In this document: positions 1,394 to 23,548 of the stretch, piece after piece
Layout of the letters: every line of letters begins with the position of its first letter
How positions within the stretch are numbered: the first letter of the stretch is position 1
Source: Hydnum rufescens UP504
Lineage: Eukaryota > Basidiomycota > Agaricomycetes > Cantharellales > Hydnaceae
Length of the DNA: 23,548 nt
Assembly: GCA_014904985.1 (NCBI GenBank)
Contig: MU129191.1
Location: 19,522-43,069 of the forward strand
Reading direction: 5' to 3'
Notes under the pieces: model-generated
Seen by the model: only the letters and a program-made list of their open reading frames with translations
The model's database searches: none
What the model was told of the DNA's origin: nothing
Program-made: the position numbers and the translations under genes

Positions 1394-1498
1394 CTAGAAC
1401 AACAAATAATAATACATTAGTAAAAAGAAAACAAGGGGGCCAAAAGAGCAGCAGAAGCTGCTCTTTTGGCCCTTGTATGTCCTGTAATTAAAACTTAC
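1394..1498 (-). other. Intron-like module L8, Element 1
   Basis: 5' splice site GTAAGT (1498-1493), A stem at about 1432-1475 (GGCCAAAAGAGCAGC pairing with GCTGCTCTTTTGGCC), branch TACTAAT near 1416-1422, and TTCTAG ending at 1394; 105 nt. The B stem expected just upstream of the 5' site is not recognisable here. Confidence 0.65.
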
Positions 1499-1622
1499 CA
1501 GGTGCTTTGCCCGGGGTTGTGTCAGTTGCGGGTGTTTGAGGGCTGGGCCTCAGGTGCAGTTGTCAGGGGCTATGCCTCTGTATTTCATGCAGGGGCTTTT
1601 CACACAGGGAGGGAGAAGGCAC

Positions 1623-1729
1623 CTAGATCGGTAAATAATATGTTAATAAAAAAAAAAGGAGGCAGTGCCAAAAGAGCAGCTTCTGCTGCTCTTTTGGTGC
1701 TGTTGTACGTCCTGTAATTGATAACTTAC
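1623..1729 (-). other. Intron-like module L7, Element 1
   Basis: GTAAGT at 1729-1724, A stem about 1664-1702, branch ATTAAC, GATCTAG ending at 1623; 107 nt. The B stem of the preceding exon is at 1738-1767 and is almost perfectly self-complementary (ACCACACACCCGC with a GTGGGTGTGTGGT partner). Confidence 0.7.
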
Positions 1730-1870
1730 CAGGTATTACCACACACCCGCTGCAGTGGGTGTGTGGTACCATATTTAGTTTGGTGTTGTGCAGATCCAGA
1801 GTTCAGGCAGCTGCACACATTTGTATTCATCTCAAACCTCATTGGGTGGGGTATTGTGCAGTGGAGGTAC

Positions 1871-1980
1871 CTAGATAATAAGACATTAGTAAAGAAAAAA
1901 AAACCAAAGACAACGCCAAAAGAGCAGCTGGCGCTGCTCTTTTGGTGTCATCATACCATATGCCCATAATAAAAACATTT
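1871..1980 (-). other. Intron-like module L6, Element 1 (5' site lost)
   Basis: TTACTAATG branch and TATCTAG 3' site ending at 1871 are intact and the A stem lies at 1914-1948. At the place of the 5' site the minus strand reads AAATGT where sister modules have GTATGT, so this intron should not splice normally. B stem at 1989-2018. Confidence 0.6.
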
Positions 1981-2123
1981 CTAATATTGCCACACACCCG
2001 CTTTGGTGGGTGTGTGGCATCATTGTATTGTGGATAGTCAAGTGTTGAGGTCTTGCATGGCTGCGCACACTCCGGTATTTTGCCTGGGTGCATTCTTTGC
2101 ATGGGGGTTTCATGGGAGAAGGC

Positions 2124-2224
2124 CTGGAATAATCAGTATGTTAGTTTTAAAAAAATAACAGAAGCAACACCAAAAGAGCAGTTGGTGCTGCTCTTTTGGT
2201 GCCATACTGTACTCAAAAACTCAC
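2124..2224 (-). other. Intron-like module L5, Element 1
   Basis: GTGAGT at 2224-2219, A stem about 2169-2203 (CACCAAAAGAGCAG pairing with CTGCTCTTTTGGTG), branch AACTAAC, TTCCAG ending at 2124; 101 nt. B stem at 2233-2261, with one arm carrying GTGCATGG in place of GTGTGTGG. Confidence 0.7.
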
Positions 2225-2367
2225 CCAATATTGCCACACACCCGCCGAAGTGGGTGCATGGTTCGTTTGGGGCCCCGCAGCCTTGTGCTGTGTGTTCCCA
2301 TTACTGGGTTTTGTCTGGGGGGTGTTCTTGGCATGTCATGTTTTGGCCTCTGGTTTGGCAGGCGTGT

Positions 2368-2469
2368 TTAAAATAAAAGTTATGTTAGTATCAATGATTC
2401 AAAGCAGTGCAAAAGAGCAGCTTTTGCTGCTCTTTTTGTGCCACTGTATTTACAGTAATAAAAACATAC
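2368..2469 (-). other. Intron-like module L4, Element 1 (3' site lost)
   Basis: GTATGT at 2469-2464, A stem about 2404-2446, and a good TACTAAC branch near 2385. The 3' end reads TTTTAAAC, with no AG where other modules have YAG. B stem at 2478-2507. Confidence 0.6.
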
Positions 2470-2621
2470 CTTATATTACCACACACCTGCCGAAGTGGGT
2501 GTGTGGTTCCATCTGGCATTTCTGGCATCTTGCGTTGTGCATCCCTGTTCCCAGGTTTTGTCTGGTGGGTCAGGGGTTTTTGGTTCGTGGTTTGTGCGGG
2601 TTGTGGGTACAGATGGGCAAC

Positions 2622-2729
2622 CTACGATAATAAATCAGACATTAGTTGAGAGCCAAAATAAATAAAAAAGAAAAGCCATGCAAAAGGAGCAGCCTAGGCT
2701 GCTCCTTTTGCATGATGGTAAGTACTTAC
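2622..2729 (-). other. Intron-like module L3, Element 1
   Basis: GTAAGT at 2729-2724, A stem at 2677-2714, branch AACTAAT, CGTAG ending at 2622; 108 nt. The A stem differs from the consensus on both sides at once: GGAGCAGCC pairs with GGCTGCTCC, a compensatory change. B stem at 2736-2764. Confidence 0.7.
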
Positions 2730-2888
2730 CTTGAAACCAACACACCCTTCGGCGGGTGCATGGTTCCTGTGGCTCTCATGGTCTTCTGGTGTGGTTTTGG
2801 CAGGTTATGATTCAGGGGTGGTGTGCAGGTTGTTGTTTTGGGGAGGGGGGTTCGTTTGGCAGGGGTTTCTTGTGGTTGAGGCGATGGT

Positions 2889-2988
2889 CTAGAATAAGAG
2901 ATGATATATTATTTAAAATTGAAACCAGCCCAAAAAGAGCAGCATTGGCTGCTCTTTTTGGGCTATTAGAGGTGCATGATGGACTTAC
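2889..2988 (-). other. Intron-like module L2, Element 1
   Basis: GTAAGT at 2988-2983, A stem at 2927-2964 (AGCCCAAAAAGAGCAGC pairing with GCTGCTCTTTTTGGGCT), TTCTAG ending at 2889; 100 nt. A clear CTAAY branch is not visible. Its B stem (3506-3535) is now separated from the 5' site by the solo LTR at 3002-3503. Confidence 0.65.
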
Positions 2989-3001
2989 CTTACATAGAAC
3001 C

Positions 3002-3503
3002 TGTTAGTGGTGTCAAAGTCCCTTAAGCCACTTTGGTAGATGTATGGATCAAGGGGTTGGCTCCCTAGTAGCTAGAACCCTTTTATTCCCTTCTCTCTCA
3101 TTTTCTACCCTAAACCAGTGGGAAGCTTCTCCCACAGGGAGTTTGGTGCTGCCCCAGGAATTGCCACCTTACTTAGATAGTCTCTATTAGTTACATAAGC
3201 TGTAAGGGAAAAGCCATGGCAATGCCTGAGGCAATATATCTTTTCTACCATCACCATCTGTCCGTCTCGTGGAGCCGCGGACTTACAGATTACGCACTAT
3301 ACACTGTGCGACCCCCAGCCTAATGGCTAAACCTTCCTATTTTGCCTTATGGGTATAGAGACATTAACCCTCCAGGAGCTACTGGCTGCCAGGCAAGACG
3401 GAAGGGTCTTAGTCCCTCTAACTGGCCTAATCCATTAGAGCCAGAGCCTCCTCCATCTCCTGGCTCCACCCCATTCCTTAGTTCAGATACGACAGAACTA
3501 ACA
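3002..3503. mobile_element. Solo LTR, 502 bp, inserted in Element 1
   Basis: The insert begins TGTTAGTGGTGTC and ends CAGAACTAACA, so it has the TG...CA termini and short inverted ends (TGTTAGT / ACTAACA) of a retrotransposon LTR. It is flanked by a perfect 5-bp direct repeat, GAACC, at 2997-3001 and 3504-3508. Removing the insert and one repeat restores the normal order of 5' splice site, 8-12 nt gap and B stem seen in sister modules. No internal retroelement sequence remains, so the likely origin is LTR-LTR recombination after insertion. Orientation and superfamily cannot be told. Confidence 0.85.
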
Positions 3504-3687
3504 GAACCACACACCCACTGCAGCAGGTGTGTGGTTTGCATGGTCACTCAGTGGGCACATTCTCACTTGTCGTGGTGTCATTTGGTGTCTTTTTGTTTGT
3601 TGCATATTCGGTTGGCACATTGTTGTTTGGACCTGACCATTTGGTCCTTGTTGTTGGCCGGTTTTCTTTTGAGCACCAGGCCATGAT

Positions 3688-3796
3688 CTAAGATAATAAA
3701 AGAATAACATTAGTAATGATATTCAAAGCCATGCAAAAGAGCAGCTTTTGCTGCTCTTTTTGCGCCTGTGTATCTGCTTCAATCAAAAAAACTCAC
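3688..3796 (-). other. Intron-like module L1, Element 1 (nearest core)
   Basis: GTGAGT at 3796-3791, with an overlapping GTAAGT just upstream (3800-3795) as an alternative donor. A stem about 3731-3766, branch TACTAAT, TCTTAG ending at 3688; 109 nt. B stem at 3804-3833. Confidence 0.65.
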
Positions 3797-3892
3797 TTAC
3801 ATGACCACACACCTGCTGCTGCAGGTGTGTGGTTGTTGGCTTGCCTCTCTTGGTTGTCTGTTCAGTGTGTGGCTGCGTAGTTGCGGAGAGCA

Positions 3893-4238
3893 CAACTCAA
3901 TGCTGGCAAATGCCGGCACTCAAAAAGTGCCAAGTCCTGTGGCCACAAGCACAATATAAATTAATAGCAGCATCTAGACATGTTCTAAATACTAAATAAT
4001 AATATTTATCCAAAAATGCGAAAGAAGATGACAATAATAAGTCTGGGCTCAATAAGGCACAATAGGCCTATCATGCCTTATTGAGCCCTAACTTATTATC
4101 ATCATCATCTTTTGCATTTTGGATAAATATTTATTATTTAGTATTTAGAACATGTGTAGATGCTTGCTATTAATTTATATTGTGCTTGTGGCCACAGGAC
4201 TTGGGTGCTTTTTGAGTGTCAGCATTTGCCAGTGTTGA
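3893..4238. repeat. Core palindrome of Element 1
   Basis: Inverted repeat centred at AGGCCT (4063-4068) with arms of roughly 170 bp. Matching blocks include TTAATTTATATTGTGCTTG and its complement and the CTCAATAAGGCA block. Arms differ by substitutions and small indels. It separates minus-strand modules on the left from plus-strand modules on the right and is the presumed origin of divergent transcription. Confidence 0.75.
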
Positions 4239-4363
4239 GTTGCATTCTCTTCACAACCACAACAACCACCCACCACAACCACCCAGAAAAGGAAGCAGGG
4301 AAACACCCAAAAAGGGAAGCAGATGACCATGCACCTGCTGCTGTGGGTGTGTGGTCATATAAG
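4160..4363 (+). other. First exon-like segment, right arm of Element 1
   Basis: From an ATG at 4160 a frame stays open for 68 codons to the donor position at 4363, beginning MLAINLYCACGHRTWVLFEC and then becoming Thr/His/Pro-rich. The matching segment of Element 2 (8836) begins MLGTIVYCACSASAWALLEY. The 81 nt compared align without gaps. If the next intron were removed, the frame would stop 32 codons into the next exon. The left arm has a 1-nt indel just after the ATG that changes frame. A conserved RNA leader is as good a reading as a short peptide. B stem at 4326-4355. Confidence 0.35.
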
Positions 4364-4483
4364 ATGAGTTTCTTTTTTTATCATAGTAGCTACAATAGCG
4401 CAAAAGAGCTGCTGTTGCTGCTCTTTTTGCACTCCTTTAGATTTTTTTACTAACATATCTTTTATTGTCTTTTATTATTCTAG
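4364..4483 (+). other. Intron-like module R1, Element 1 (AT donor)
   Basis: The donor reads AAG|ATGAGT, so the essential GT is AT. Branch TACTAAC and ATTCTAG ending at 4483 are intact. A stem about 4398-4432, where the inner stem is spoiled (GAGCTGC opposite GCTGCTC). About 120 nt. Confidence 0.6.
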
Positions 4484-4695
4484 ATCACAGCCTGGTCAAG
4501 GCATGGCAGGCCTTGTCAAACGATGCTGGCCCAAACAGAAATGCGAGAAAAAGAATGCAGCACACAAGAACATGACACATGAGACACGACACACGAGAAT
4601 GCAATGCATGAGAACGCGCCCAATGCACCAGACATGCCCAATGAGTGAACCAGAGACCACACACCTGCTGCAGCAGGTGTGTGGTACTATATAAG

Positions 4696-4793
4696 GTGAG
4701 TCCTCCCCCAAATCGATACAGCACACAAAAAGAGCAGCAAAAGCTGCTCTTTTTGTGCTGATTTAATTTGTAACTACATATCTGTTTTTCTAG
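4696..4793 (+). other. Intron-like module R2, Element 1
   Basis: AAG|GTGAGT, A stem at 4719-4760 (CAGCAC...GTGCTG outer pairs), TAACTA branch, TTTCTAG; 98 nt. B stem at 4656-4685 is a nearly perfect 30-nt palindrome (ACCACACACCTGCTG / CAGCAGGTGTGTGGT), ten bases from the donor. Confidence 0.75.
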
Positions 4794-5036
4794 GTGATCT
4801 GCTTGACCACCAATGAAGAAAAGAATGAACGGAACAGACACCTGCCAAATGAACCCAAGCCCCCCAAAATGACAGCCCACCACATGAACACACGCCAGAT
4901 GGCAACCCATGTACCAAAGACCACATGCCAATGAAACCCGCGCAGGTGAGACCAGATGATGGCACAAAACAATGCAGAGCCAACGAGTGGCCCCAGGAAC
5001 CACACACCCACTGTGGTGGGTGTGTGGTACCACAAG

Positions 5037-5136
5037 ATAAGTTTTTTATTTTGTATTTTTTTGTGGTGCAAGAAGAGCAGCATAAGCTGCTCTTCTTGCA
5101 ATCTTTAATGTTTAACTAACATGTTTATTCTTCTAG
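5037..5136 (+). other. Intron-like module R3, Element 1 (AT donor)
   Basis: Donor AAG|ATAAGT, again AT for GT. A stem at 5067-5100 is TGCAAGAAGAGCAGC with GCTGCTCTTCTTGCA, a paired A-to-G/T-to-C change from the consensus. AACTAAC branch and CTTCTAG are intact. 100 nt. B stem at 4999-5028. Confidence 0.65.
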
Positions 5137-5388
5137 CTTTTGGACTCGCACCCACATGAACCCCACCCCAAACCTGCCGAGTGAAACCCCACAACCACGA
5201 CCCTGCCAAATGAAGACCCAGTGAGCAAAACCCGCCCAAAGACATGCCAAATGACCCACCCCCCCTTCCTATACAACACAACAAAGAAAACTGTGAAAAC
5301 ACGACCAGTGCGACCACGACAGAGGACAACATGTGCAGCAAACGGCAGCACAAACCACACCTGCTACAGCGGGTGTGGCCTATATATG

Positions 5389-5494
5389 GTGAGTCCCGCC
5401 CCCAGCAGTGTATAGCCATGCAAAAAGAGCAGTGTAAGCTGCTCTTTTTGTGCTGCCTTTACTTCTTTACTGACCAACTTTTTTTTTCTATTAG
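5389..5494 (+). other. Intron-like module R4, Element 1
   Basis: ATG|GTGAGT, A stem about 5417-5454 with one mismatch (GAGCAGT opposite GCTGCTC), weak branch GACCAAC, long T run, ATTAG; 106 nt. B stem at 5355-5378 is shortened. Confidence 0.65.
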
Positions 5495-5621
5495 GTCTTC
5501 ACCTTTCACGTGAGCAAATACCAATGTGAAAACCCCCATGACCCCGCATATCGAAACCCAGCTGACCATACACGGGGAATATAAAGTACCACACCCACCG
5601 CCATGGGTGTGGTACTACAAG

Positions 5622-5719
5622 GTGAGTTTTTTTCATTAATCCTGCAGTGCAAGAAGAGCAGCATAAGCTGCTCTTCTTGCAAAGCTTTATTGTCTAACAT
5701 GTTTTTTTTTTTTTCCTAG
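5622..5719 (+). other. Intron-like module R5, Element 1
   Basis: AAG|GTGAGT, A stem at 5648-5681 with the same GAAGAGC/GCTCTTC variant as R3, TCTAAC branch, 12-nt T run, CCTAG; 98 nt. B stem at 5588-5613. Confidence 0.7.
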
Positions 5720-5892
5720 ATCTTGGACTCAAATCCACATGAACCCCTGACCCCAAACCCACCAAATGAACACCTGGTGAATGAAGATCTGGCGAGCCGA
5801 GCCTTGTGACCCACCCCATGACCCCAAACCCGCTGAGCTGAACCCCGCGACCCCAAACCTGGGGAACCAAGCCAAACCCCCCCCACATGAAG

Positions 5893-5956
5893 GTGAGGTT
5901 TTTTCTTTGGCTGTGATTGTGCAAGAAGAGCAGCCTCTGGCTGTTCTTCTTGGGCA
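5893..5956 (+). other. Truncated intron-like module R6, Element 1
   Basis: AAG|GTGAGG donor and an eroded A stem (about 5919-5956) are present, but no branch site or YAG follows; the sequence passes directly into an unrelated inverted repeat. No B stem precedes it. This marks the broken right end of Element 1. Confidence 0.55.
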
Positions 5957-6150
5957 CATGGGTGAGCCCCACTGGTATGGTTGCCACGGTCAGGTTTTGG
6001 TCAGGTTTTGCCCAATTTGGGCAAAACCTAAACCTGACCAGGTTCCAAAATCACCCATGAGGGCAAAACCTGAACCTGACCTGAGGTTTGGTCTCATTCA
6101 GGTCAGGTTCAGGTTTAAACCTGAAACCTGAGGTATGAGGGAAGCCAACA
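5957..6150. repeat. Compound inverted repeat with AGGTTT-type motif
   Basis: The motif CAGGTTTAGGTTTTGCCC recurs in both orientations. One hairpin (about 5991-6041) has GGTCAGGTTTTGCCCAA opposite TTGGGCAAAACC, and CATGGGTGA at about 5958 is matched by TCACCCATG at about 6051. A second set of copies fills 6060-6133. It may be a small TIR element or a simple-repeat-derived MITE that replaced the end of Element 1. Confidence 0.55.
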
Positions 6151-6341
6151 TTTTCAGGGGGTATTACAGAATATCTACACCCTCTGCTCAAGCCTCTGCC
6201 TCTGCCACTCCCTTTACATCCTGCTTTAGATCCACATATCCTTCCTAGCCCCCTTTCACTTCAATTTACTGCTCACACATCTTCTGGAGATGGTATTTAG
6301 TCACTACATTCTGTCATGTGACTTGTGACCTGCACCAATTA
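6151..6341. other. Spacer, nothing recognised
   Basis: About 190 bp between the AGGTTT-type repeat and the end of Element 2. Pyrimidine-rich on the plus strand, with no repeat, gene or RNA signal that I can see. Confidence 0.4.
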
Positions 6342-6600
6342 CAGGCTGGTCAGTCACATAGGGGACCTAATTTAGGTACCACTTTCGGGCAGAAAATGGT
6401 ACCTAATAGGTCCCCCAAACCTTACGGCTGAAATCAGGCTATTCCAATTCAGTTTTTGGGCCATCTGTCGGCCAATCCATGGCTGTGCTAGATTATATAC
6501 TTATTTATTATTATTTGTTTACTATTTATTATTATTATTATTACTACTATTATTATATACATATTACACTATATACATATTATCCCCCCCGGGGTCTGCC
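6342..6600 (+). repeat. Terminal repeat of Element 2 with subterminal TTA run
   Basis: Begins CAGGCTGGTCAGTCACATAG. Inside is the stem TTAGGTACCA...TGGTACCTAA with a loop containing CTTTCGGGCAGAAAA, followed by a GGCC-containing block, a TTA/ATT microsatellite (about 6500-6560) and a C run. The same order occurs at 10922 and, inverted, at 15583, and a diverged version at 23149, so it is the terminal signature of the family. Confidence 0.75.
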
Positions 6601-6819
6601 ACCACAGGGGGGGATGGTTGATGCGGGTCACGCACCTGCATATACCCACCACACCCGCTGCAGCGGGTGGGGTTCACACACCCCGATTGGGGGCCGGCTC
6701 CATTTGGGCGCTCCCTCAAGGGGGCCGGTTTTCATTCGCAGGCTCGTTCGTGGTTATCGTCGGCGATGTCGTTTGGCGGATTTGTATTCGGGAGTTCGCC
6801 CTGGGTTCTGGCCTAGGAT

Positions 6820-6929
6820 CTAAAGAAATAATTAAGGAAACATTAGTTGAATATTAATGCAGCACAAAAAGAGCAGCTTATGCTGCTCTTTTTGCGCCAC
6901 AAGAAGAAATTTATAAAAATAAAACATAC
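6820..6929 (-). other. Intron-like module L5, Element 2 (outermost)
   Basis: GAG|GTATGT donor (6929-6924), A stem at 6862-6896, AACTAATG branch, TCTTTAG; 110 nt. The last exon beyond it (minus strand, below 6820) contains a further B stem at about 6647-6672. Upstream B stem at 6936-6967. Confidence 0.75.
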
Positions 6930-7074
6930 CTCCTAGTACCCCACACCCGCTGCGGCGGTGTGGGGTACTGAGCCCGTGTACATACGGCGGTTCCTACGGA
7001 TGTCCGTCGTTTGGGCGTCGATACGGGGGGCACGGGGGTTTTGCGTCGGTATTCGTTTGCGGGGGCATTGAGAC

Positions 7075-7182
7075 CTGCGAGATAAAGTTTTTAAATTAGT
7101 TAGAATCAAAAACCACGCAAAAAGAGCAGCTTTCGCTGCTCTTTTTGCGTGGCTGTAGGTACTGAGGAGGGCGGGGACTTAC
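7075..7182 (-). other. Intron-like module L4, Element 2
   Basis: CAG|GTAAGT donor (7182-7177), A stem at 7113-7152 with CCACGC/GCGTGG outer pairs, TAACTAAT branch, CTCGCAG; 108 nt. The following exon is 145 nt. B stem at about 7193-7222. Confidence 0.78.
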
Positions 7183-7408
7183 CTGATATAGAACCACACA
7201 CCCGCCGGGGCGGGTGTGTGATTCCGTGCCCTCGTTTGGTGCGTTGCCGTGGGCTTTGGTGCGGTCGCGTCGTTGGCCCATTGCTGTGTCGCGTTGGTGT
7301 ATCGTGTTGCCGTGTATCGTGTTGCCGCGTCGCGTTGCCATGTGGCACGTCGCTGTTTGGGCTCTCGTCATTTCGTGGGTTATCGTCCTGCGTTGGAGGG
7401 GCCGCAAT

Positions 7409-7516
7409 CTAGAATAATGCACATCAGTAAAAAAAAAATTCCAAAGCAGCGCAAAAAGAGCAGCTTACGCTGCTCTTTTTGCGCCACAAGAATAAAAAAA
7501 CGAAAAGAAATCTTAC
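7409..7516 (-). other. Intron-like module L3, Element 2
   Basis: GTAAGA donor (7516-7511), A stem at 7449-7484 with GCGC/GCGC outer pairs, TACTGATG branch, TTCTAG; 108 nt. B stem at 7523-7556 is a long one (GTACCCCACACCCGC with GCGGGTGTGGGGTAC). Confidence 0.75.
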
Positions 7517-7674
7517 TTTGTAGTACCCCACACCCGCTGGAGCGGGTGTGGGGTACTGGAGCCGTACTCCAGCTCGCATGTGCGGCGGTTTGTACGGGTC
7601 CCCTCGTTCGGGTGTCGACGGGCGGGGTTATGGGGGTTCTTGCGTAGGTATTCGTTCGCGCGGGAAGTGGTGAC

Positions 7675-7779
7675 CTGGAATATAAGATTATACGTTAGTT
7701 AAGAGTTAAAGACCACGCAAAAAGAGCAGCTTTCGCTGCTCTTTTTGCATGCCTGTAGTTACTGGGGGGGGGGACTCAC
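7675..7779 (-). other. Intron-like module L2, Element 2
   Basis: AAT|GTGAGT donor (7779-7774), A stem about 7713-7751, AACTAACG branch, TTCCAG; 105 nt. B stem at 7790-7819. The following exon is 158 nt. Confidence 0.77.
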
Positions 7780-8065
7780 ATTATATAGTACCACACACCC
7801 GCCGTGGCGGGTGTGTGGTTCCTGGGGGCCTCATTTGGCGCGGTCGCGTGCTTGTTTGGCGCGTTGCCGTAGGTCGGGTTGCCGTGTGTCGCATTACCGT
7901 GTGTCGCGTCTTCGTTTGGCGCGTTGCCGTTTGGCGCGATTGCCGTGTCGCGCTGTCGTGCGTCGCGTTTCTGTGTCGCGTTGCCGGATGTCGCGTTGCT
8001 GCGTCGTGTTTCCGTACGTCCCATGGCTGTTTGGGCTCTCATCATGCGTTGGACGAGGCCTCAAC
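7780..8065 (-). other. Exon-like segment 2, left arm of Element 2, with short internal repeats
   Basis: This 286-nt segment between two intron-like modules has very few T residues on its sense strand outside the B stem. It consists largely of short quasi-repeats built from CGACACACGGCAACGCG and CGCCAAACGGCAACG. Joined to exon 1 in phase, the frame runs about 52 codons, rich in Arg and Thr, and then meets a TAA. No protein domain is recognisable. I take it as exon-like non-coding sequence. Confidence 0.45.
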
Positions 8066-8170
8066 CTAAAATAAATAAAGAGACGTTAGTAAGATGTTCC
8101 AAAGCAGCGCAAAAAGAGCAGCTTTCGCTGCTCTTTTTGCGCCGTTGTATCTACTAGAAAAAATACTCAC
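8066..8170 (-). other. Intron-like module L1, Element 2 (nearest core)
   Basis: AAG|GTGAGT donor (8170-8165), A stem at 8107-8142 with perfect GCGCAAAAAGAGCAGC pairing, TACTAACG branch, ATTTTAG; 105 nt. B stem at 8176-8207. Confidence 0.78.
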
Positions 8171-8349
8171 CTTGTGACCACACACCCGCAGCGGCGGGTG
8201 CGTGGTCGTGCGGTTGCCTTTTCGGGCGGTTGCTTGTTGTGGTTGCGGAGATAGGAAGCAAGATGCAGATTCAACACCGGCAATTGCCGATACTCAAGAA
8301 GCGCCCAAGCGCTGGCGCTGCAAGCACAGTACACAATAGTACCAAGCAT

Positions 8350-8380
8350 GTATATTATAAATAAATACTATATAATAAAA
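8350..8380 (-). promoter_or_regulatory. TATA-like box upstream of left first exon
   Basis: On the minus strand TATATAGTATTTATTTATAA precedes the ATG at 8349 by under 30 nt. It is the exact mirror of the plus-strand copy. Promoter function is inferred from position and composition only. Confidence 0.3.
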
Positions 8381-8804
8381 AATTGTCCAGGAAAACCCGA
8401 AGAAGAGGATGGTAATGAGTCAGAGGTCAATAAGGCATGAGATCGCTAATTACAGAGTGGATTGGGCCACTTCTACGCATCAGAATTGGCCCAAATTTGA
8501 ATATAGTAGTGTTATATATACGATCTACATGGGCGATTAATTATCTCGGACGATTTTCGCATTTTCAATTTTTCACGCCTTCAATTCCCTAAATAGGGAA
8601 TTGAAGGCGTGAAAAATTGAAAATGCGAAAATCGTCCGAGATAATTAATCGCCCATGTAGATCGTATATATAACACTACTATATTCAAATTTGGGCCAAT
8701 TCTGATGCGTAGAAGTGGCCCAATCCACTCTGTAATTAGCGATCTCATGCCTTATTGACCTCTGACTCATTACCATCCTCTTCTTCGGGTTTTCCTGGAC
8801 AATT

Positions 8805-8835
8805 TTTTATTATATAGTATTTATTTATAATATAC
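8805..8835 (+). promoter_or_regulatory. TATA-like box upstream of right first exon
   Basis: TATATAGTATTTATTTATAA ends just before the ATG at 8836. With its mirror copy it would make the core a two-way promoter. The distance to the ATG is short, so transcription could start downstream of this ATG. Confidence 0.3.
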
Positions 8836-9123
8836 ATGCTTGGTACTATTGTGTACTGTGCTTGCAGCGCCAGCGCTTGGGCGCTTCTTGAGTATCGGCA
8901 ATTGCCGGTGTTGAATTTCGAACTCTACGCAGCCACACCCAGCAAGCGACCGCATGACCACGACACAACAGCAACAGCAACAACAGCAACAACAGCAACA
9001 ACAGCAGCAACAGCTGCAGCTGCTGCAGCTGCTGCAACAGCAGCAGCAACAGTGCACGACCGCGACCGCATGACCCACGACCACACGACCACACACCCGC
9101 TGATGCGGGTGTGTGGTTATGAG
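8836..9123 (+). other. First exon-like segment, right arm of Element 2
   Basis: A 96-codon open frame from ATG 8836 to the donor at 9124: an N-terminal part MLGTIVYCACSASAWALLEY shared with the left arm, then a long Thr/Ala run from a CAG/CAA repeat, then a B stem (about 9091-9116). Removing the 103-nt intron gives only 13 more codons before a TGA. No domain or signal peptide is convincing. The shared start is explained by the core palindrome and need not be coding. Confidence 0.35.
8963..9052 (+). repeat. CAG/CAA and CTG repeat block
   Basis: About 90 nt of ACAACAGCAACAG-type units pass into CAGCTGCAGCTGCTGCAG and return to CAGCAGCAACAG, so the block is itself self-complementary. Present only in the right arm of Element 2; the left arm has other sequence at this place. 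Confidence 0.8.
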
Positions 9124-9226
9124 GTAAGTTTTGTCTCAGTAAATACAATACCGCAAAAGAGTAGCGCAAGCTACTCTTTTTGCGCTGCCATGAATTTTTA
9201 TACTAACATAGCCTCTATTCCTCCAG
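9124..9226 (+). other. Intron-like module R1, Element 2
   Basis: GAG|GTAAGT, A stem about 9151-9186, TACTAACA branch, CCTCCAG; 103 nt. The A stem has GAGTAGC opposite GCTACTC where all others have GAGCAGC/GCTGCTC: a clean compensatory pair change. Confidence 0.8.
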
Positions 9227-9312
9227 ATCAAAACCAAAACAACAAACGACAGGCCGCCCAGTGAGTGAGCCCAGGAACCACACCCGCTGCGGCGGGTGTG
9301 GTTCTATTTAAG

Positions 9313-9414
9313 GTGAGTCTCCCCCCCCTAATAGATGCAGCCGCGCAAAAGAGCAGCGAAAGCTGCTCTTTTTGCGTCGCTTTTAATTTTGTAACTAATT
9401 ATATTTTATTCTAG
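9313..9414 (+). other. Intron-like module R2, Element 2
   Basis: AAG|GTGAGT, A stem about 9339-9380, AACTAAT branch, ATTCTAG; 102 nt. The preceding exon is only 86 nt, and its B stem is at 9274-9304. Confidence 0.78.
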
Positions 9415-9525
9415 GTATTGCCATAAATGAAGGACCCAAGCAGCAAGCCCGCCACAAAGGAGACCCGCGAAACGAAGAGACGAACCACACACCCGCTACT
9501 GCGGGTGGTGGTCTATCTATACAAG

Positions 9526-9620
9526 GCAATGTAACGCACCACCCGACGACGCAAAAAAGACAGCGAAAGCTTGCCTCTGTGTGCTTGTTAATTCTTTTTA
9601 CTAATATTTTTTATTCCTAG
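9526..9620 (+). other. Intron-like module R3, Element 2 (weak donor)
   Basis: Donor reads AAG|GCAATG, so it would need a GC donor or is mutated. The A stem (about 9548-9585) is eroded. TACTAAT branch and ATTCCTAG are good. About 95 nt. The B stem near 9484-9512 is disturbed (GCGGGTGGTGG). Confidence 0.55.
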
Positions 9621-9773
9621 GTACAGTATTGTCACAAATGAAGACCGAAGAACGCCACGAAGCAAGCAACCCCCACCAACGTAACACGCCCCGAGGAGGG
9701 ACCCCGAACGACGACGGCCACACGAAGAGACGAACAAACACACCGCCTTCGGCGGTGCGTGTGTAATTTTAAG

Positions 9774-9870
9774 GTGAGCATATAACCACCGCAAAAGGAG
9801 CAGCGTACGCTGCTCTTTTTGCGTGCGCTTTTTCTTTTTTCCTTGTTACTAACATTATACGTTATTTTAG
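9774..9870 (+). other. Intron-like module R4, Element 2
   Basis: AAG|GTGAGC, A stem about 9789-9829, TACTAACA branch, TATTTTAG; 97 nt. B stem about 9738-9764 (ACACACCGCC loop GGCGGTGCGTGTGT). The next exon-like segment (9871-10061) ends in a short B stem, and a donor-like GGTTTTTT lies just before the gap. Confidence 0.7.
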
Positions 9871-10093
9871 GGTTGTCTGAACCACACGACCCCACCAAGC
9901 AAACACAGGAGAACGGCAACGGACCCACCAAACGAAACACGCGAGAGTTCAAACCCCCAACATTTTGACGACCAAGCCCCGTTACCTGAGTACGAACCGC
10001 ACGGACCGCGTACAAAACCAAGGACCACAACCCCACTTCGGGTGGTGTAGTCCTTACAAAGGTTTTTTAATTTATTTCCTCCCCTCTTTTTTT

Positions 10094-10118
10094 NNNNNNN
10101 NNNNNNNNNNNNNNNNNN
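10094..10118. other. Assembly gap of 25 N
   Basis: The gap joins the right arm of Element 2 to copia sequence with no family terminus between them, so about 700 bp of Element 2 plus unknown flank are missing here. The real gap size and the correctness of the join are unknown. Confidence 0.95.
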
Positions 10119-10742
10119 GTGGCTCAATTCTCCTCTCGTCCAGGCATAAACACATCACTGCCACCAAGCACCTGCTCCGGTACCTCGCTGGCTCTATCCA
10201 TATGCATCACCTTCTGACATGATGGTGGAAACCTTCTGGGTTACACTGACTCTGACTATGCTATGGACCCTACAACTTGCAAATCCATCTCAGGCTACAT
10301 CTTCACCCTCTCCAGTGGCCTGGTTTCGTGGAGCTCTAAAGGCCAAGCCACTGTTGCCCAATCTTCACCAAAGCAGATATGTTGCTGCTGCTGAAGCTGC
10401 CAAAAAGGCTTGTCTGGATCTGCCACTACTGCTGGGTTTAGATCAGGATGTCACCTCCCACCACCTCTCTTCATTGATAATTGCGGTGCCCAACTCCCAG
10501 AAAAAAAACCCATTAATCACATGCACACAAAACACATCAATGTACAACACCACTACATCTGCCAATGCATCACTGATGGATCCATTGACCTCAAGTTCAT
10601 CTCCCCATGCCAACAACCCGCAACCTATTCACCAAACCACTTGGCCTGCACAAAGTCCACCTCTTTCGAAATTTGGTGGGGTAAAACACCTCCCCCTGAG
10701 TCATGGCACCTAGATCCTTGTCAGTGGTCGAGTGAGGTGGCA
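10119..10742 (+). pseudogene. Ty1/copia RNase H fragment (left, damaged copy)
   Basis: Plus-strand frames carry HITATKHLLRYLAGSIH at the C-terminal edge of reverse transcriptase and then RNase H sequence, broken by several frameshifts. It is the mirror image of 15763-16380, which has the same protein nearly uninterrupted, so this copy has lost or gained single bases at many places. The differences look more like sequencing error than ordinary decay. A polypurine-type tract, GTGAGGTGGCA, ends just before the LTR start at 10743. Confidence 0.75.
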
Positions 10743-10921
10743 TGTTACGGCAAAATGCTCTGACACTGCCACTGCAATGTCCGCCACCACCACTATCCAT
10801 TAGATGCCACACGATCCGGACATGCACCAAAGCGCGCATTGTCCGCATGCATTGCTTTCCCCATTTCTTCCATATAAACTTATGCTAGCCTTGCAACTCA
10901 GCAACCAATTGATTACGGTTC
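10743..10921 (+). mobile_element. Partial copia LTR (left copy, first 179 bp)
   Basis: Starts TGTTACGGCAAAATGC directly after the polypurine tract, includes a CATATAAACTTATGC TATA-like stretch, and ends abruptly at the terminus of Element 3. The mirror copy at 15584-15762 has exactly the same length. Confidence 0.65.
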
Positions 10922-11397
10922 CAGGCTGGTCAGTCACATAGGGGACCTAATTTAGGTACCACTTTCGGGGCAGAAAATGGGTACTAATAGGTCCCCCAAA
11001 CCTTACGGCCGAAATCAGGCTATTCCAATTCAGTTTTTGGGCCATCTGTCGGCCAATCCATGGCTGTGCTAGATTATATACTTATTTATTATTATTGTTA
11101 CTATTATTATTATTATTATTATTACTACTATTATTATATACATATTACACTATATACATATTATCCCCCCGGGGTCTGCCACCCACAGGGGGGGATGGTT
11201 GATGCGGGTCACGCACCTGCATATACCCACCACACCCGCTGCAGCGGGTGGGTTCACACACCCCGATTGGGGCCGGCTCCATTTGGGCGCTCCCTCAAGG
11301 GGGCCGGTTTTCATTCGCAGGCTCGTTCGTGGTTATCGTCGGCGATGTCGTTCGGCGGATTTGTATTCGGGAGTTCGCCCGGGTTCTGGCCTAGGAT

Positions 11398-11508
11398 CTA
11401 AAGAAATAATTAAGGAAACATTAGTTGAATATTAATGCAGCGCAAAAAGAGCAGCTTATGCTGCTCTTTTTGCGCCACAAGAAGAAATTTATAAAAAATA
11501 AAACATAC
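11398..11508 (-). other. Intron-like module L5, Element 3
   Basis: GTATGT donor (11508-11503), A stem about 11439-11476 with GCGC outer pairs, AACTAATG branch, TCTTTAG; 111 nt. B stems at 11515-11547 and, in the terminal exon, 11227-11253. Confidence 0.75.
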
Positions 11509-11652
11509 CTCCTAGTACCCCACACCCGCTGCGGCGGTGTGGGGTACTGAGCCCGTGTACATACGCGGTTCCTACGGATGTCCGTCGTTTGGGCGTCGAT
11601 ACGGGGGGCACGGGGGTTTTGCGTCGGTATTCGTTTGCGGGGGCATTGAGAC

Positions 11653-11764
11653 CTGCGAGATAAAGTTTTTAAATTAGTTAGAATCAAAAACCACGCAAAA
11701 AAGAGCAGCTTTCGCTGCTCTTTTTGCGGTGGGCTTTGGTACTGAGGAGGGCGGGGAAACTTAC
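11653..11764 (-). other. Intron-like module L4, Element 3
   Basis: GTAAGT donor (11764-11759), A stem about 11690-11729, TAACTAAT branch, CTCGCAG; 112 nt. B stem at 11779-11804. The insert of a few bases relative to module L4 of Element 2 looks like base-calling noise. Confidence 0.72.
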
Positions 11765-11991
11765 TTGTTTAGGGAACCCACACACCCGCCGGGGCGGGTG
11801 TGTGAAATTCCGTGCCCTCGTTTGGTGCGTTGCTGGCTTTGGTGCGGTCGGTCGTTGGCCCTTTGCTGTGTCGCGTTGGTGTTTTGTGTTTGCCGTGTAT
11901 TCGCGTGGCCGTCGCGCGTTGCCGTGTGGCACGTCGCTGTTTGGGCTCTCGTCGTTTCGTGGGTTATCGTCTGCGTTGGGAGGGCCGCAAT

Positions 11992-12100
11992 CTAGGGATA
12001 ATGCACATCAGTAAAAAAAAATTCCAAAGCGCGCAAAAAGAGCAGCTTACGCTGCTCTTTTTGCGCCCCACCAGAATAAAAAACGAAAAGAAATTCTTAC
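11992..12100 (-). other. Intron-like module L3, Element 3
   Basis: GTAAGA donor (12100-12095), perfect A stem about 12030-12066, TACTGATG branch, TCTAG; 109 nt. B stem at 12108-12141 has one unpaired base. Confidence 0.7.
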
Positions 12101-12256
12101 TTTGGTAGTACCCACAACCCGCTCCAGCGGGTGTGGGGTACTGGAAGCGTACTTTCAGCTCGCATGTGCGGCGGTTGTTACGGTCCCTCGTTTCGGGTGC
12201 GACGGGCGGGGTTATGGGGTTCTTGCGTAGGTATTCGTTCGCGCGGGAAGTGGTGA

Positions 12257-12365
12257 CTGGAATATAAAGATTATAACGTTAGTTAAGAGTTAAAGACCAC
12301 GCAAAAAGAGCAGCTTTTCGCTGTCTTTTTGCGTGCCTTTGTTAGTTACTTGGGGGTTTGGTCAC
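12257..12365 (-). other. Intron-like module L2, Element 3
   Basis: The donor reads GTGACC where the counterpart in Element 2 reads GTGAGT; AACTAACG branch and TTCCAG are kept. The A stem about 12297-12335 is missing one base (CTGTCTTTTT). B stem at 12376-12405. Confidence 0.65.
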
Positions 12366-12650
12366 ATTATATAGTACCACACACCCGCGTGGGCGGGTGT
12401 TTGGTTGCCTGGGGGCCTTATTTGGCGCGGTCGCGTGCTTGTTTGGCGCGTTGCCGTAGGTCGGGTTGCCGTGTGTCGCATTACCGTGTGTCGCGTCTTC
12501 GTTTGGCGCGTTGCCGTTTGGCGCGTTGCCGTGTCGCGCTGTCGTGCGTCGCGTTTCTGTGTCGCGTTGCCGGATGTCGCGTTGCTGCGTCGTGTTCCGT
12601 ACGTCCCATGGCTGTTTGGGCTCTCATCATGCGTTGGACGAGGCCTCAAC

Positions 12651-12755
12651 CTAAAATAAATAAAGAGACGTTAGTAAGATGTTCCAAAGCAGCGCAAAAA
12701 GAGCAGCTTTCGCTGCTCTTTTTGCGCCGTTGTATCTACTAGAAAAAATACTCAC
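12651..12755 (-). other. Intron-like module L1, Element 3
   Basis: GTGAGT donor (12755-12750), A stem about 12692-12727, TACTAACG branch, ATTTTAG; 105 nt, same as module L1 of Element 2. B stem at about 12761-12792. Confidence 0.75.
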
Positions 12756-12829
12756 CTTGTGACCACACACCCGCAGCGGCGGGTGCGTGGTTCGTGGCGT
12801 TGCCTTTTCGGCGTTGGCTTGTTTGTGGT

Positions 12830-13690
12830 TGCGGAGATTAAGGGAAGCAAGATGCCAGGATTCCAAACAACCGGCCATTGCCATTTACTCCAGGAGCGCC
12901 CAAGCGGCTGGCGCTGCAAAGCCACAGGTAAACATAAGTACCAAGGATGTATATTTATAAAATAATACATAATAATAATTGTCCAGAAACCCCCCGGAAG
13001 AAAGGGATGGTAATGGAAATTAGAGGGTCAAAAAGGGCATGAATCCGGCTAAATTACAGGAAGGTGGATTTTGCACTTTTACGCATCAGAATTGGGCCCC
13101 AAATGAATATTAGTGTGTTTATTTACGGATCTACCCATGGCGGGATTAATCTTCGGGACGGATTTTTCGGGGCATTTCATTTTCCAACGCTCAATTCTAT
13201 TAGGGAAATGAGGCGTGAAAATTGGAAAAATGCGGAAAATCCGGGTCCGAATTAATTAATTCGGGGCCATGGAGTCGGTTATTAATAAACACTTTCTATC
13301 AAATTTTGGGGGCCAATCTTGGGATGGCGTAGAATGCAATTCCCATCGTTTAATTGGGGATTTCATTCCCTTTATTGGACTGGGGGAAACTCCATACCAT
13401 TTCCCTCTTTCGGTTTTCCTGGGACAAATTTTTTTTATATAGTAATTTATTTATAATATACATGGCTGGTTACTATGGTTTAACTTTGTGGGGCTTGGGC
13501 CAGCCGGGCCAGCTGGGCGTTCTGAAAGTTTATCGGCCCAATTTGCGGGTTGTTGAATCGGCATTCTTGGTCCCTATTCTTTCCGGACCCCACAAACAAG
13601 GGGCAAAACGCCCGGAAAAAGGCAAAACCCGCCAGACCCCCAACGCCACCGGGGCCGCTGCGTGGTGTGGTCCCAACCAAAGGTTGAGGA
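12830..13690. repeat. Core palindrome of Element 3, disturbed
   Basis: The blocks of the Element 2 core can be followed (TTGTCCAG, GGATGGTAATG, TTACGCATCAGAATTGG, a centre near CAATTCTATTAGGGAAATG), but nearly every line has added, lost or changed bases, with doubled C, G, A and T runs. The clean core of Element 2 and the clean outer arms of Element 3 argue that this is poor sequence rather than old sequence. Confidence 0.55.
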
Positions 13691-13802
13691 AAGTATTTTT
13701 GTAGTACAAACGGCGCCAAAAAAGAGCAGCGAAAAAGTGCTCTTTTTTGCCGCTTGGGCTTTGGGGAACATTCCTTACTACCGTTCCTTTTATTTATTTT
13801 AG
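13686..13802 (+). other. Intron-like module R1, Element 3 (disturbed)
   Basis: Mirror of module L1. Donor region AAAGTATTTTT, A stem about 13715-13752 with extra A and T bases, and a TTATTTTAG 3' end followed by GGTTGAG as in Element 2. Boundaries approximate. Confidence 0.5.
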
Positions 13803-14117
13803 GGTTGAGCCCTCGTTCCAACGCCATGATAGAGGCCAAACACCCAGCCATGGACGTAACGGAAACACGACGGCAAGGCAACGGGCGACATCCGAACCGA
13901 CAACGAAACGCGACGACCCGACAGCGCGACACGGCAAAACGGGGCCAAACGGCCAACGCCCAAACGAAAGAACCCCGGGACACACGGTAAATGCCGACCC
14001 ACACGGCAACGACCCACGGAAAACGGCAAAAACAAGGACGGGAACCCGCCTGCAAATTTGGAGGGCCCCCCAGGGGGAACAACCACCACCGCCAGCGTGT
14101 TTGTACATTATTTTAAT

Positions 14118-14226
14118 TGGGAGCCCCCCCCAATTTAAACTACAGGCCCACGGCCAAAAAAAGAGCAGCGAAGGCTTTCTCTTTTTTGCGGAGTCCTTAA
14201 TTTACTAACGTATATTCTTATATTCA
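14118..14226 (+). other. Intron-like module R2, Element 3 (disturbed)
   Basis: The donor region is scrambled (TTGGGAGCCCC for TGTGAGTCCCC). A stem about 14155-14190 is incomplete. TACTAACG branch and ATTCAG are readable. Mirror of module L2. Confidence 0.5.
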
Positions 14227-14395
14227 GTCCACCCACTTCCCGGCCCGAAACGGAATTAACCTACCGCCAAAGGACCCAAATACGACCCGCCGTCGACACC
14301 CGAAAACGAACCCCGTACCAAAACCGCGGGCAATGCGAAAGGGGCTGGAGTACGGGCTCCAGTAACACACCCGCTGAAAGCCGTGTACTAACAAA

Positions 14396-14513
14396 GTAGG
14401 ATTCTTTCGTTTTTTTTTTTCTTTGTGGCGGGCCCAAAAAGAGAGGGCGTAAGCTTGCCCTCTTTTCCCGCTTGGCTTTTGAATTTTTTTTTATATTGTG
14501 GCATTTATTCTAG
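14396..14513 (+). other. Intron-like module R3, Element 3 (disturbed)
   Basis: Donor GTAGGA for GTAAGA; the A stem near 14431-14473 is barely recognisable (GAGAGGGCG / GCCCTCTTTT); TTATTCTAG then GGATTGCGGG as in the mirror arm. About 118 nt. Confidence 0.45.
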
Positions 14514-14742
14514 GGATTGCGGGCCCTCCCAACGGGCCAAGGGCGATTAAACCCACGAAAAACGACGGAAAGACAAAACAGCCGACGTGCCCAACACGGC
14601 AACGCGACCCCAAACCGATACACGCAACCACGATACACAACGCGACGCGAGCAATGGGCCAACGAGCGACCGCAACAAAGCCCACGGCAACGCACAAACG
14701 AGGGCACGAATCACACACCGCCCGGCGTTTGTTCTATATCAG

Positions 14743-14854
14743 GTAAGTCCCCGCCCTCCTCAGTTACCTACAGCCACGCAAAAAGAGCAGCGGAAAGCTG
14801 CTCTTTTTGCGTTGTTTTTGATTCTAACTAATTTAAAAACTTTATCTCGCGAAG
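14743..14854 (+). other. Intron-like module R4, Element 3
   Basis: CAG|GTAAGT, A stem about 14775-14812, TAACTAAT branch, 3' end CTCGCGAAG where the mirror module has CTCGCAG; 112 nt. From here outward the right arm is clean again. Confidence 0.68.
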
Positions 14855-14997
14855 GTCTCAATGCCCCCGCAAACGGAATACCGACGCAAACCCCCGTGCC
14901 CCCCGTATCGACGGCCCAAACGACGGACATCCGTAGGAACCCGCCGTATGTACACGGCTCATACCCCCACACTGCCGCAGCGGTGTGGGTACTAGGA

Positions 14998-15105
14998 GTA
15001 TGTTTATTTTATAAATTCTTCTTGCTGGCGCAAAAAGAGCAGCATAAGCTGCTCTTTTTGCGCTGCATTAATATTCAACTAATGTTTCCTTAATTATTTC
15101 TTTAG
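14998..15105 (+). other. Intron-like module R5, Element 3 (outermost)
   Basis: GTATGT donor, A stem about 15028-15064, AACTAATG branch, TCTTTAG; 108 nt. It is followed by the terminal exon with B stem around 15252-15276 and then the C run and TTA run of the element end. Confidence 0.75.
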
Positions 15106-15583
15106 ATCCTAGGCCAGAACCCGGGCGAACTCCCGAATACAAATCCGCCGAACGACATCGCCGACGATAACCACGAACGAGCCTGCGAATGAAAACCGGC
15201 CCCCTTGAGGGAGCGCCCAAATGGAGCCGGCCCCAATCGGGGTGTGTGAACCCCACCCGCTGCAGCGGGTGTGGTGGGTATATGCAGGTGCGTGACCCGC
15301 ATCAACCATCCCCCCCTGTGGTGGCAGACCCCGGGGGATAATATGTATATAGTGTAATATGTATATAATAATAGTAGTAATAATAATAATAATAATAAAT
15401 AGTAAACAAATAATAATAAATAAGTATATAATCTAGCACAGCCATGGATTGGCCGACAGATGGCCCAAAAACTGAATTGGAATAGCCTGATTTCGGCCGT
15501 AAGGTTTGGGGGACCTATTAGGTACCATTTTCTGCCCCGAAAGTGGTACCTAAATTAGGTCCCCTATGTGACTGACCAGCCTG

Positions 15584-15762
15584 GAACCGTAATCAATTGG
15601 TTGCTGAGTTGCAAGGCTAGCATAAGTTTATATGGAAGAAATGGGGAAAGCAATGCATGCGGACAATGCGCGCTTTGGTGCATGTCCGGATCGTGTGGCA
15701 TCTAATGGATAGTGGTGGTGGCGGACATTGCAGTGGCAGTGTCAGAGCATTTTGCCGTAACA
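15584..15762 (-). mobile_element. Partial copia LTR (right copy, first 179 bp)
   Basis: On the minus strand it begins TGTTACGGCAAAATGC right after a polypurine tract, AGTGAGGGGGCA, and runs into the terminus of Element 3. It is the mirror of 10743-10921. The rest of this LTR is not found on the far side of Element 3, which is where a simple insertion would have put it. Confidence 0.7.
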
Positions 15763-15783
15763 TGCCCCCTCACTCTGACCACT

Positions 15784-23148: not shown

Positions 23149-23548
23149 CTCACCTTGGTCAGTCATCTAAGCCTACCTAGTTAGGTACCACTTTTGGGGC
23201 AGATAATGGTACCTAAGTAGGTCCCATCACTATTCCGGCCGAAATGGCCATTTTACGGTCTGCACCTTGTGGCCCAGAGTTGGCCAAAATGGCCGAAAAT
23301 TGGCCAAAAATTGGCCGAATCTGGGACTTAGAGAACCTCAGACTTGCAGCGGGCCATACGGCATACCAGGGATAGTTCCATTTATAATTATTTATATTAT
23401 ACATCCCCAGGTCATTGACTTGTTTATTTATTGATTTATTGATTTAAAAATTCAATATACACCTTGGGCCTATATGCATCCCTCAAAATGAAAAAAAAAA
23501 TTTAAGTAGCACCACACACCCATCCTAGCGGTGTATGGTCCTGTCTTA
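23149..23548 (+). mobile_element. Element 4: left end of another hairpin-array element
   Basis: CACCTTGGTCAGTCATCTAA resembles the terminus CAGGCTGGTCAGTCACATAG of Elements 2 and 3. The subterminal stem TTAGGTACCA...TGGTACCTAA, with the loop CTTTTGGGGCAGATAA, is kept almost unchanged, followed by GGCC-rich short repeats, an AT-rich run near 23380, a CCCC block, and a first B stem at 23512-23539 (ACCACACACCC...GGTGTATGGT). The window ends there. It is inserted in the RT region of copia relic 2, so the family moved after that retrotransposon arrived. Confidence 0.75.

What the first reader, a model, noticed from the sequence alone, without database searches (positions are those of the whole stretch)
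1394..15105. Family of arrays in which every unit is a canonical intron carrying its own hairpin
Seen directly: about 30 units share a fixed order of B stem, donor (GTGAGT/GTAAGT/GTATGT), A stem, CTAAC/CTAAT branch site, T-rich tract and YAG, at 95-120 nt from donor to acceptor. Unit orientation switches exactly at the palindromic cores. Known: this spacing and these signals match fungal spliceosomal introns, and introner elements are known to spread hairpin-bearing introns in fungi and algae. Inference: the arrays are multi-intron transcription units that travel as one mobile element. I know of no described family with this architecture.
Basis: partly seen in the sequence, partly recalled or inferred. 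Interest (0 to 1): 0.92.

Follow-up and report, generated by a model that had tools for sequence, protein, structure and literature searches.

The report
Transposon built from intron arrays
An apparently fungal genome carries a DNA transposon of roughly 5 kb, with about 520 recognisable ends, whose two arms are strings of intron-like modules pointing outward from a central palindrome; if transcribed, these would likely be spliced out of long RNAs that look non-coding, so introns would be the main body of a mobile element.

Summary
The observation largely holds. In 31 loci, 217 of 390 A hairpins carry a strict donor plus branch site and acceptor on exactly one strand, none on both (random control 2.2%). 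Oriented by the B hairpin alone, 169 of 273 have the full set on the expected strand and 1 on the other. The arrays are the body of a DNA transposon. It has inverted ends (520 exact matches in 63 Mb, control 0), paired A with B in 19 of 21 listed cases, mostly 4.4-6.9 kb apart, and 7-8-bp target duplications in 4 of 11 copies (control 0). Modules run outward from a palindrome of about 650 bp. Without the hairpin the introns are about 60 nt, against 55 nt for 11 host introns. Exons are T-poor and show no sign of coding. The third array (10919-15586) is probably a fold-back artefact. Transcription and splicing are inferred; no RNA was available. Introner membership is not supported. Best reading: a likely non-autonomous transposon with two divergent, multi-intron, probably non-coding transcription units.

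The parts
6341..10077 (.). Copy 1 of the transposon: end A, left array, central palindrome and right array; cut short by the N gap at 10094-10118, so its end B side is missing
   Evidence: Matches full copies L009, L010 and L016 at 91-96% identity; end found
6342..6400 (+). End A (CAGGCTGGTCAGTCACATAGGGGACCTAATTTAGGTACC...), inverted terminal repeat
8269..8916 (.). Central palindrome (99.7% self-inverted); predicted divergent promoter region, TATATAG at 8811
   Evidence: promoter is inference
8066..8170 (-). Intron module, aag|GTGAGT ... TACTAAC ... YAG, 105 nt
7675..7779 (-). Intron module, aat|GTGAGT ... AACTAAC, 105 nt
7075..7182 (-). Intron module, cag|GTAAGT, 108 nt
6820..6929 (-). Intron module, gag|GTATGT ... 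AACTAAT, 110 nt
9124..9226 (+). Intron module, gag|GTAAGT ... TACTAAC, 103 nt
9313..9414 (+). Intron module, aag|GTGAGT ... AACTAAT, 102 nt
9774..9870 (+). Intron module, aag|GTGAGC ... TACTAAC, 97 nt
1394..3800 (-). Second family, left array (units at 1394-1498, 1623-1729, 2124-2224, 2622-2729, 3688-3796 and others)
3675..4496 (.). Self-inverted centre of the second family (75%), about 70% similar to the centre of copy 1
4364..5719 (+). Second family, right array (introns 4696-4793, 5389-5494, 5622-5719; units at 4413 and 5082 have AT in place of the GT donor, by eye)
10919..15586 (.). 'Copy 2': fold-back duplicate of the copy 1 left arm with an error-rich middle; probable assembly or read artefact
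23151..23548 (+). End B (CACCTTGGTCAGTCATCTAAGCCTACCTAGTTAGG...) and start of a further copy, cut by the window edge

Best explanation
This is a DNA transposon, mostly 4.4-6.9 kb between its inverted ends, whose body is two arrays of intron-like modules running outward from a central palindrome, and the modules are predicted to be spliced by the host spliceosome out of two likely divergent, probably non-coding transcripts. Shown: ends, A-B pairing, copy number, target duplications in some copies, order and orientation of the modules, effective intron length. Inferred: a promoter in the palindrome, transcription, splicing, and movement by a transposase supplied in trans. The A hairpin would loop out and bring donor and branch site to the distance usual in this host. 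Modules appear to be gained and lost as whole exon-plus-intron units inside the array: several copies differ from L009 by exactly one unit. What the element gains is the least certain step; I favour that efficient splicing would let long, hairpin-rich transcripts pass as normal pre-mRNA and so would blunt silencing or early termination.
For: Full strict signal set on exactly one strand of 217 of 390 A stems, 0 on both, random control 2.2%. 169 of 273 against 1 of 273 when oriented by the B stem only; for branch plus acceptor alone 241 against 10. 185 of 193 strict full-signal units within 2.5 kb of the centre of the fetched loci point outward. TACTAAC (111) and AACTAAT (84) are the two commonest of 324 branch sites, with A-to-AG distance 17-26 nt. 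Element introns: median 104 nt, 60 nt (5-95%: 48-77) without the hairpin, n=243; 11 hand-read host introns have median 55 nt (49-73). Exon T 11.3% against intron T 41.1%. Exon indels of 2-60 nt by length mod 3 are 71:48:100, and a 211-aa open stretch has no Pfam match. 520 ends, reversed control 0; 19 of 21 listed convergent pairs are A+B; target duplications in 4 of 11 copies, control 0. L019, L025, L043 and L044 have one unit fewer than L009. A-stem loops are GNRA in 175 and ANRA in 100 of 343 four-base loops, the reverse type in 3.
Against: No RNA data. 124 of 390 stems have no strict donor on either strand; 4 of 22 larger unit clusters lack a GT donor and 4 more have weak ones (by eye). 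GT/AG dinucleotides are not clearly better kept in copies than other intron bases (2.75% of 946 aligned cells; non-CpG substitutions in introns 2.6%), so any selection must have acted on source copies. No spliced retrocopy: of 251 matches from 40 scored candidates (not all listed), the two listed ones that cross a junction are introns that lost their hairpin. Units more than 2.5 kb from the centre show no outward bias (17 out, 19 in), perhaps because they belong to neighbouring copies. The A stem shows no excess of G-U over A-C (35 against 37). 7 of 11 copies show no target duplication. No transposase hit lies between listed ends (0 of 48).
Confidence: 0.7

Rival explanations
1. The hairpins work as DNA (binding sites or cruciforms for a transposase or recombinase), and the splice-like signals are by-products or relics of an ancestral transcribed unit.
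For: A stems are near-perfect palindromes with G-U and A-C mismatches equally common (35 and 37). GNRA-type loops are also stable in single-stranded DNA (recalled). Splice dinucleotides decay at about the neutral rate in copies, and 124 of 390 stems lack a strict donor.
Against: It does not explain why donor, branch site and acceptor stand in the right order on one strand only, why most donors stay within the splice consensus while the spacers differ, or why the length without the hairpin is close to that of host introns. B stems favour G-U over A-C (45 to 14), but related copies inflate this (9 to 3 among the 22 larger clusters).
Confidence: 0.15
2. Introner source: each module is, or was, a unit that inserts singly as an intron into host genes, and the arrays are built by repeated insertion.
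For: Introns spread by mobile DNA with inverted repeats and target duplications exist elsewhere as introners (PMC9860276, passages read). 8 of the 100 listed units have no listed neighbour or end within 6 kb.
Against: Target duplications sit at the element ends, not at the splice sites. Copies differ by whole exon-plus-intron units. The one seemingly single unit that I read, L053, lay in an array. Among the listed matches to spliced exons none shows a clean junction without intron (capped list).
Confidence: 0.07
3. Decayed multi-intron protein-coding gene carried by the transposon.
For: T-poor exons leave open stretches up to 226 aa after in-silico splicing.
Against: Indels are not multiples of three (71:48:100), no Pfam match to the 211-aa open stretch given, and stops in all frames.
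Confidence: 0.04
4. Assembly or sequencing artefact.
For: Copy 2 (10919-15586) has the marks of a fold-back read or chimera.
Against: 30 further copies were fetched, 21 of them without any N; 520 ends and 1,069 units match in the whole genome.
Confidence: 0.03

Closest known systems
Introners / introner-like elements (PMC9860276, passages read; van der Burgt et al. 2012, seen only as a cited reference)
   Same: Repeated spliceosomal-type introns spread by mobile DNA; some families have inverted repeats and target duplications
   Different: Here the splice sites are not the element ends, the introns sit in their own T-poor exons in arrays, and no insertion of a single unit into a gene was shown
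Non-autonomous TIR (class II) DNA transposons (recalled)
   Same: Inverted ends, target duplications, many copies, no transposase found inside
   Different: The body is two arrays of spliceable-looking exon-intron modules around a central palindrome, with two distinct ends A and B
Foldback elements (recalled)
   Same: Large inverted structure with internal repeats
   Different: The two arms are not mirror copies; in full copies only about the central 650 bp is a palindrome, and the units carry splice signals
Stwintrons of Hypoxylaceae (PMC8469720; search listing and abstract start only)
   Same: Sequence-similar introns multiplied in fungal genomes, with internal symmetry
   Different: Those are nested introns in genes; here there are single introns in a transposon's own arrays

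Membership tests
TIR DNA transposon | Inverted terminal repeats at both ends | tested here: met
   Ends A and B, 520 exact matches, 19 of 21 listed convergent pairs A+B, 2 B+B
TIR DNA transposon | Target site duplication | tested here: met
   7-8 bp in 4 of 11 copies, mismatched-flank control 0; absent in 7 of 11
TIR DNA transposon | Own transposase (autonomous) | tested here: not met
   0 of 48 listed hAT and KDZ hits on contigs C1-C34 lie between listed convergent ends; other superfamilies and contigs not tested
hAT superfamily | 8-bp target duplication | tested here: inconclusive
   One of 8 bp with one mismatch, three of 7 bp
Introner | Same intron inserted singly at new positions in many genes | tested here: inconclusive
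Introner | Mobile unit is bounded by the splice sites | tested here: not met
   Ends and duplications lie outside the arrays
Spliceosomal (U2-type) intron | Donor, branch site and acceptor in order at host-like spacing | tested here: met
   217 of 390 stems with strict signals, lengths; not met for every unit: 4 of 22 larger clusters lack a GT donor
Spliceosomal (U2-type) intron | Removed from RNA | not testable with these tools
   No transcriptome available; no spliced retrocopy seen (capped list)
Protein-coding gene | Frame kept by indels | tested here: not met
   Indels 71:48:100 by length mod 3
Known structured RNA family | Rfam match at gathering score | tested here: not met
   0 matches in the window and L009

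The most novel reading that the evidence does not exclude
A mobile long non-coding RNA locus whose repeating body is made of introns: a transposon that carries strings of strong, hairpin-shortened introns so that its divergent transcripts are spliced into RNAs bearing rows of exon-end hairpins, and that uses the host spliceosome for its own expression or protection.
Probability: 0.4. Interest if true: 0.9.

Novelty: new variant of a known kind. Interest (0 to 1): 0.73.

Why it matters
Introns are usually seen either as passengers in transposase genes or as single inserted introners. Here they would be the main substance of a mobile element, with about 520 ends and over a thousand strong donor-hairpin matches in one genome. 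That offers a natural test of why a non-coding transposon should invest in splicing (escape from silencing, RNA stability, avoidance of early termination) and of whether such arrays can seed introns in genes.

Tried and rejected
Giant perfect palindrome: rejected. In full copies such as L009, L010 and L016 the self-inverted part is about 650 bp and the arms differ; the apparent 6-kb palindrome at 10123-16390 is a probable artefact.

Splicing evidence from retrocopies: in-silico spliced arms aligned across junctions in 11 local matches. The seven that I inspected were one-unit differences, a chance alignment or introns without their hairpin, not spliced copies.

First versions of the strand tests accepted GTGTGT as donor, which lies in the B stem.

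Coding exons: rejected. RNA-level selection on stems: A stem none, B stem weak. Transposase partner: not found. Host: one search puts one eEF2 piece closest to yeast eEF2; many KDZ transposases suggest a basidiomycete (recalled association); no species was named. The rRNA search did not complete.

Literature: searches gave listings with abstract starts; passages of PMC9860276 were read. None of the listed papers described this architecture by title or abstract start. This says only that these searches of the open PMC library found none.
Full report
What is there. The window lies in contig C283 of a 63.2-Mb assembly of 539 contigs. One eEF2 piece from it is closest to yeast eEF2, and 11 introns that I read in conserved genes are short, so I take the host to be a fungus; many KDZ transposases suggest a basidiomycete. 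Neither is proved.

Units. Searching with 9000-9500 returned 121 matches in this genome. I fetched 30 further copies, up to about 8 kb each. In the window plus these 30 loci, 390 A stems were found by a strand-symmetric rule. With strict donors (GTGAGT, GTAAGT, GTATGT, GTGAGC), 217 have donor, branch site and acceptor on exactly one strand, 208 of them with nothing on the other, and none has the full set on both; random positions give 2.2% per strand. 124 have no strict donor on either strand. Branch plus acceptor alone occur on one strand only in 330, on both in 8, on neither in 52. In a second test the B hairpin alone oriented 273 of 335 stems; 169 had the full set on that strand and 1 on the other, and branch plus acceptor alone gave 241 against 10. 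Earlier, laxer counts took a motif inside the B stem for a donor and are replaced. The copies are related and not independent. They group into 77 unit clusters, 22 with three or more members; the spacers between donor and stem differ widely between clusters. By eye, 18 of the 22 have GT at the donor (4 of them weak), 3 GC and 1 AT. Across the genome the donor-plus-A-stem pattern occurs 1,069 times, with 0 for the reversed pattern.

Order and direction. In the 30 fetched loci, 185 of 193 strict full-signal units within 2.5 kb of the centre point outward; of 36 further away, 17 point outward and 19 inward, which may belong to neighbouring copies. In the window the strand changes at each core. 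The centre is a palindrome of about 650 bp, with a TATATAG at 8811 and its mirror; a divergent promoter there is my inference.

Intron-like properties. The commonest branch sites are TACTAAC (111 of 324) and AACTAAT (84), with the branch A 17-26 nt from the AG. In 81 of the 324 the script took a GTGTGT as donor; I dropped these before measuring lengths. The remaining 243 introns have a median of 104 nt and, without the hairpin, 60 nt (5-95%: 48-77). Eleven host introns that I read by hand have a median of 55 nt (49-73). Thus the hairpin makes the element introns longer on paper but hardly in effect. RNA folding of five unit pieces gives z-scores of -7.2 to -9.0; a sixth piece, which by my choice of coordinates did not hold a whole unit, gave -1.1. 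A-stem loops are GNRA in 175 of 343 four-base loops and ANRA, the expected CpG-decay form, in 100; the reverse complement type occurs 3 times.

Exons. Exons hold 11.3% T and introns 41.1%. Indels of 2-60 nt in exons are 71:48:100 by length mod 3, stops occur in all frames after in-silico splicing, where the longest open stretch is 226 aa, and 211 residues of it matched no Pfam family. They look non-coding.

The mobile element. Two distinct inverted ends, A (CAGGCTGGTCAGTCA...) and B (CACCTTGGTCAGTCA...), bound the copies. They match 520 times in the genome, control 0. Among the first 100 listed ends, 21 neighbouring convergent pairs are 19 A+B and 2 B+B; 18 of the 21 are 4.4-6.9 kb apart. Four of 11 full copies show 7-, 7-, 7- and 8-bp duplications exactly at the ends, control 0; seven show none, perhaps through recombination between copies. 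In L020 the element sits in an array intron of another copy, with AATGTATT/AACGTATT on its sides. No listed hAT or KDZ hit on contigs C1-C34 lies between listed ends (0 of 48), so the element is likely moved in trans; its superfamily is open.

Evolution. About half of the differences between copies are at CpG sites (61% in exons, 45% in introns). GT/AG dinucleotides change at 2.75% of 946 cells, close to the non-CpG rate of introns (2.6%), so copies are not under visible selection; if the signals are kept, it must be in the source lineage. L019, L025, L043 and L044 have one exon plus one intron fewer than L009, as if two introns had recombined; in L019 and L045 an intron has lost its hairpin, in L019 with its splice signals kept. 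The A stem shows no preference for G-U over A-C (35 to 37), the B stem does (45 to 14), but only 9 to 3 among the larger clusters. Evidence for selection on RNA structure is therefore weak.

Copy 2. The stretch 10919-15586 matches copy 1's left arm twice, forward and inverted, together with inverted Copia flanks. Its outermost 300-base bins differ from copy 1 by 0.7-2% substitutions, but bins of the middle reach 191 substitutions and 121 indels per kb; one bin between, from 12419, is clean. A read folded back on itself or an assembly error explains this better than age.

Mechanism. I commit to this: the element is probably transcribed in both directions from its centre, and its modules are probably spliced. 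The benefit is open; I favour that splicing lets the transcripts pass as ordinary pre-mRNA. This last step is a proposal and rests on no result here.

Comparison. It works like an introner only in that introns are spread by DNA transposition. It fails the feature that the moving unit is the intron itself. It is a TIR transposon by its ends and duplications. I found no description of this architecture in the listings of my searches of the open library.

Noticed in passing
window 381-997: A separate inverted repeat, 89% identical over 638 columns, centre near 690: another foldback-type element beside the arrays.
   Followed up: no
window 16894-17268: A 375-bp palindrome, 95% identical, directly beside a Copia reverse transcriptase fragment.
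   Followed up: no
window about 3000-3500: An insertion with ends CTGTTAGT...ACTAACAG and a possible 3-bp duplication sits between a B hairpin and its donor (2988) in the second family's array (read by eye).
   Followed up: no
window 20770-22122 and 16296-16859: Pieces of Copia-type retrotransposons: gag, polyprotein and RVT_2 matches in separate open frames.
   Followed up: partly
genome G000: KDZ transposases are very abundant: 584 candidates in the first look, 154 matches from 150 scored.
   Followed up: no
L019:4938-5359 and L045:4861-5199: An array intron has lost its A hairpin and shrunk to about 45 nt; branch and acceptor are kept, and the donor is kept in L019: a natural comparison for the hairpin's role.
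   Followed up: partly
window 8969-9052: A CAG/CAA repeat in the first predicted exon next to the central palindrome, also present in L009 and L053.
   Followed up: no
C3:610185, C4:96559, C5:74391, C5:90607, C5:292668, C6:202740, C7:522543, C12:449827 of G000: Eight of 100 listed units without a listed neighbour or element end within 6 kb; they could be remnants or single insertions.
   Followed up: partly
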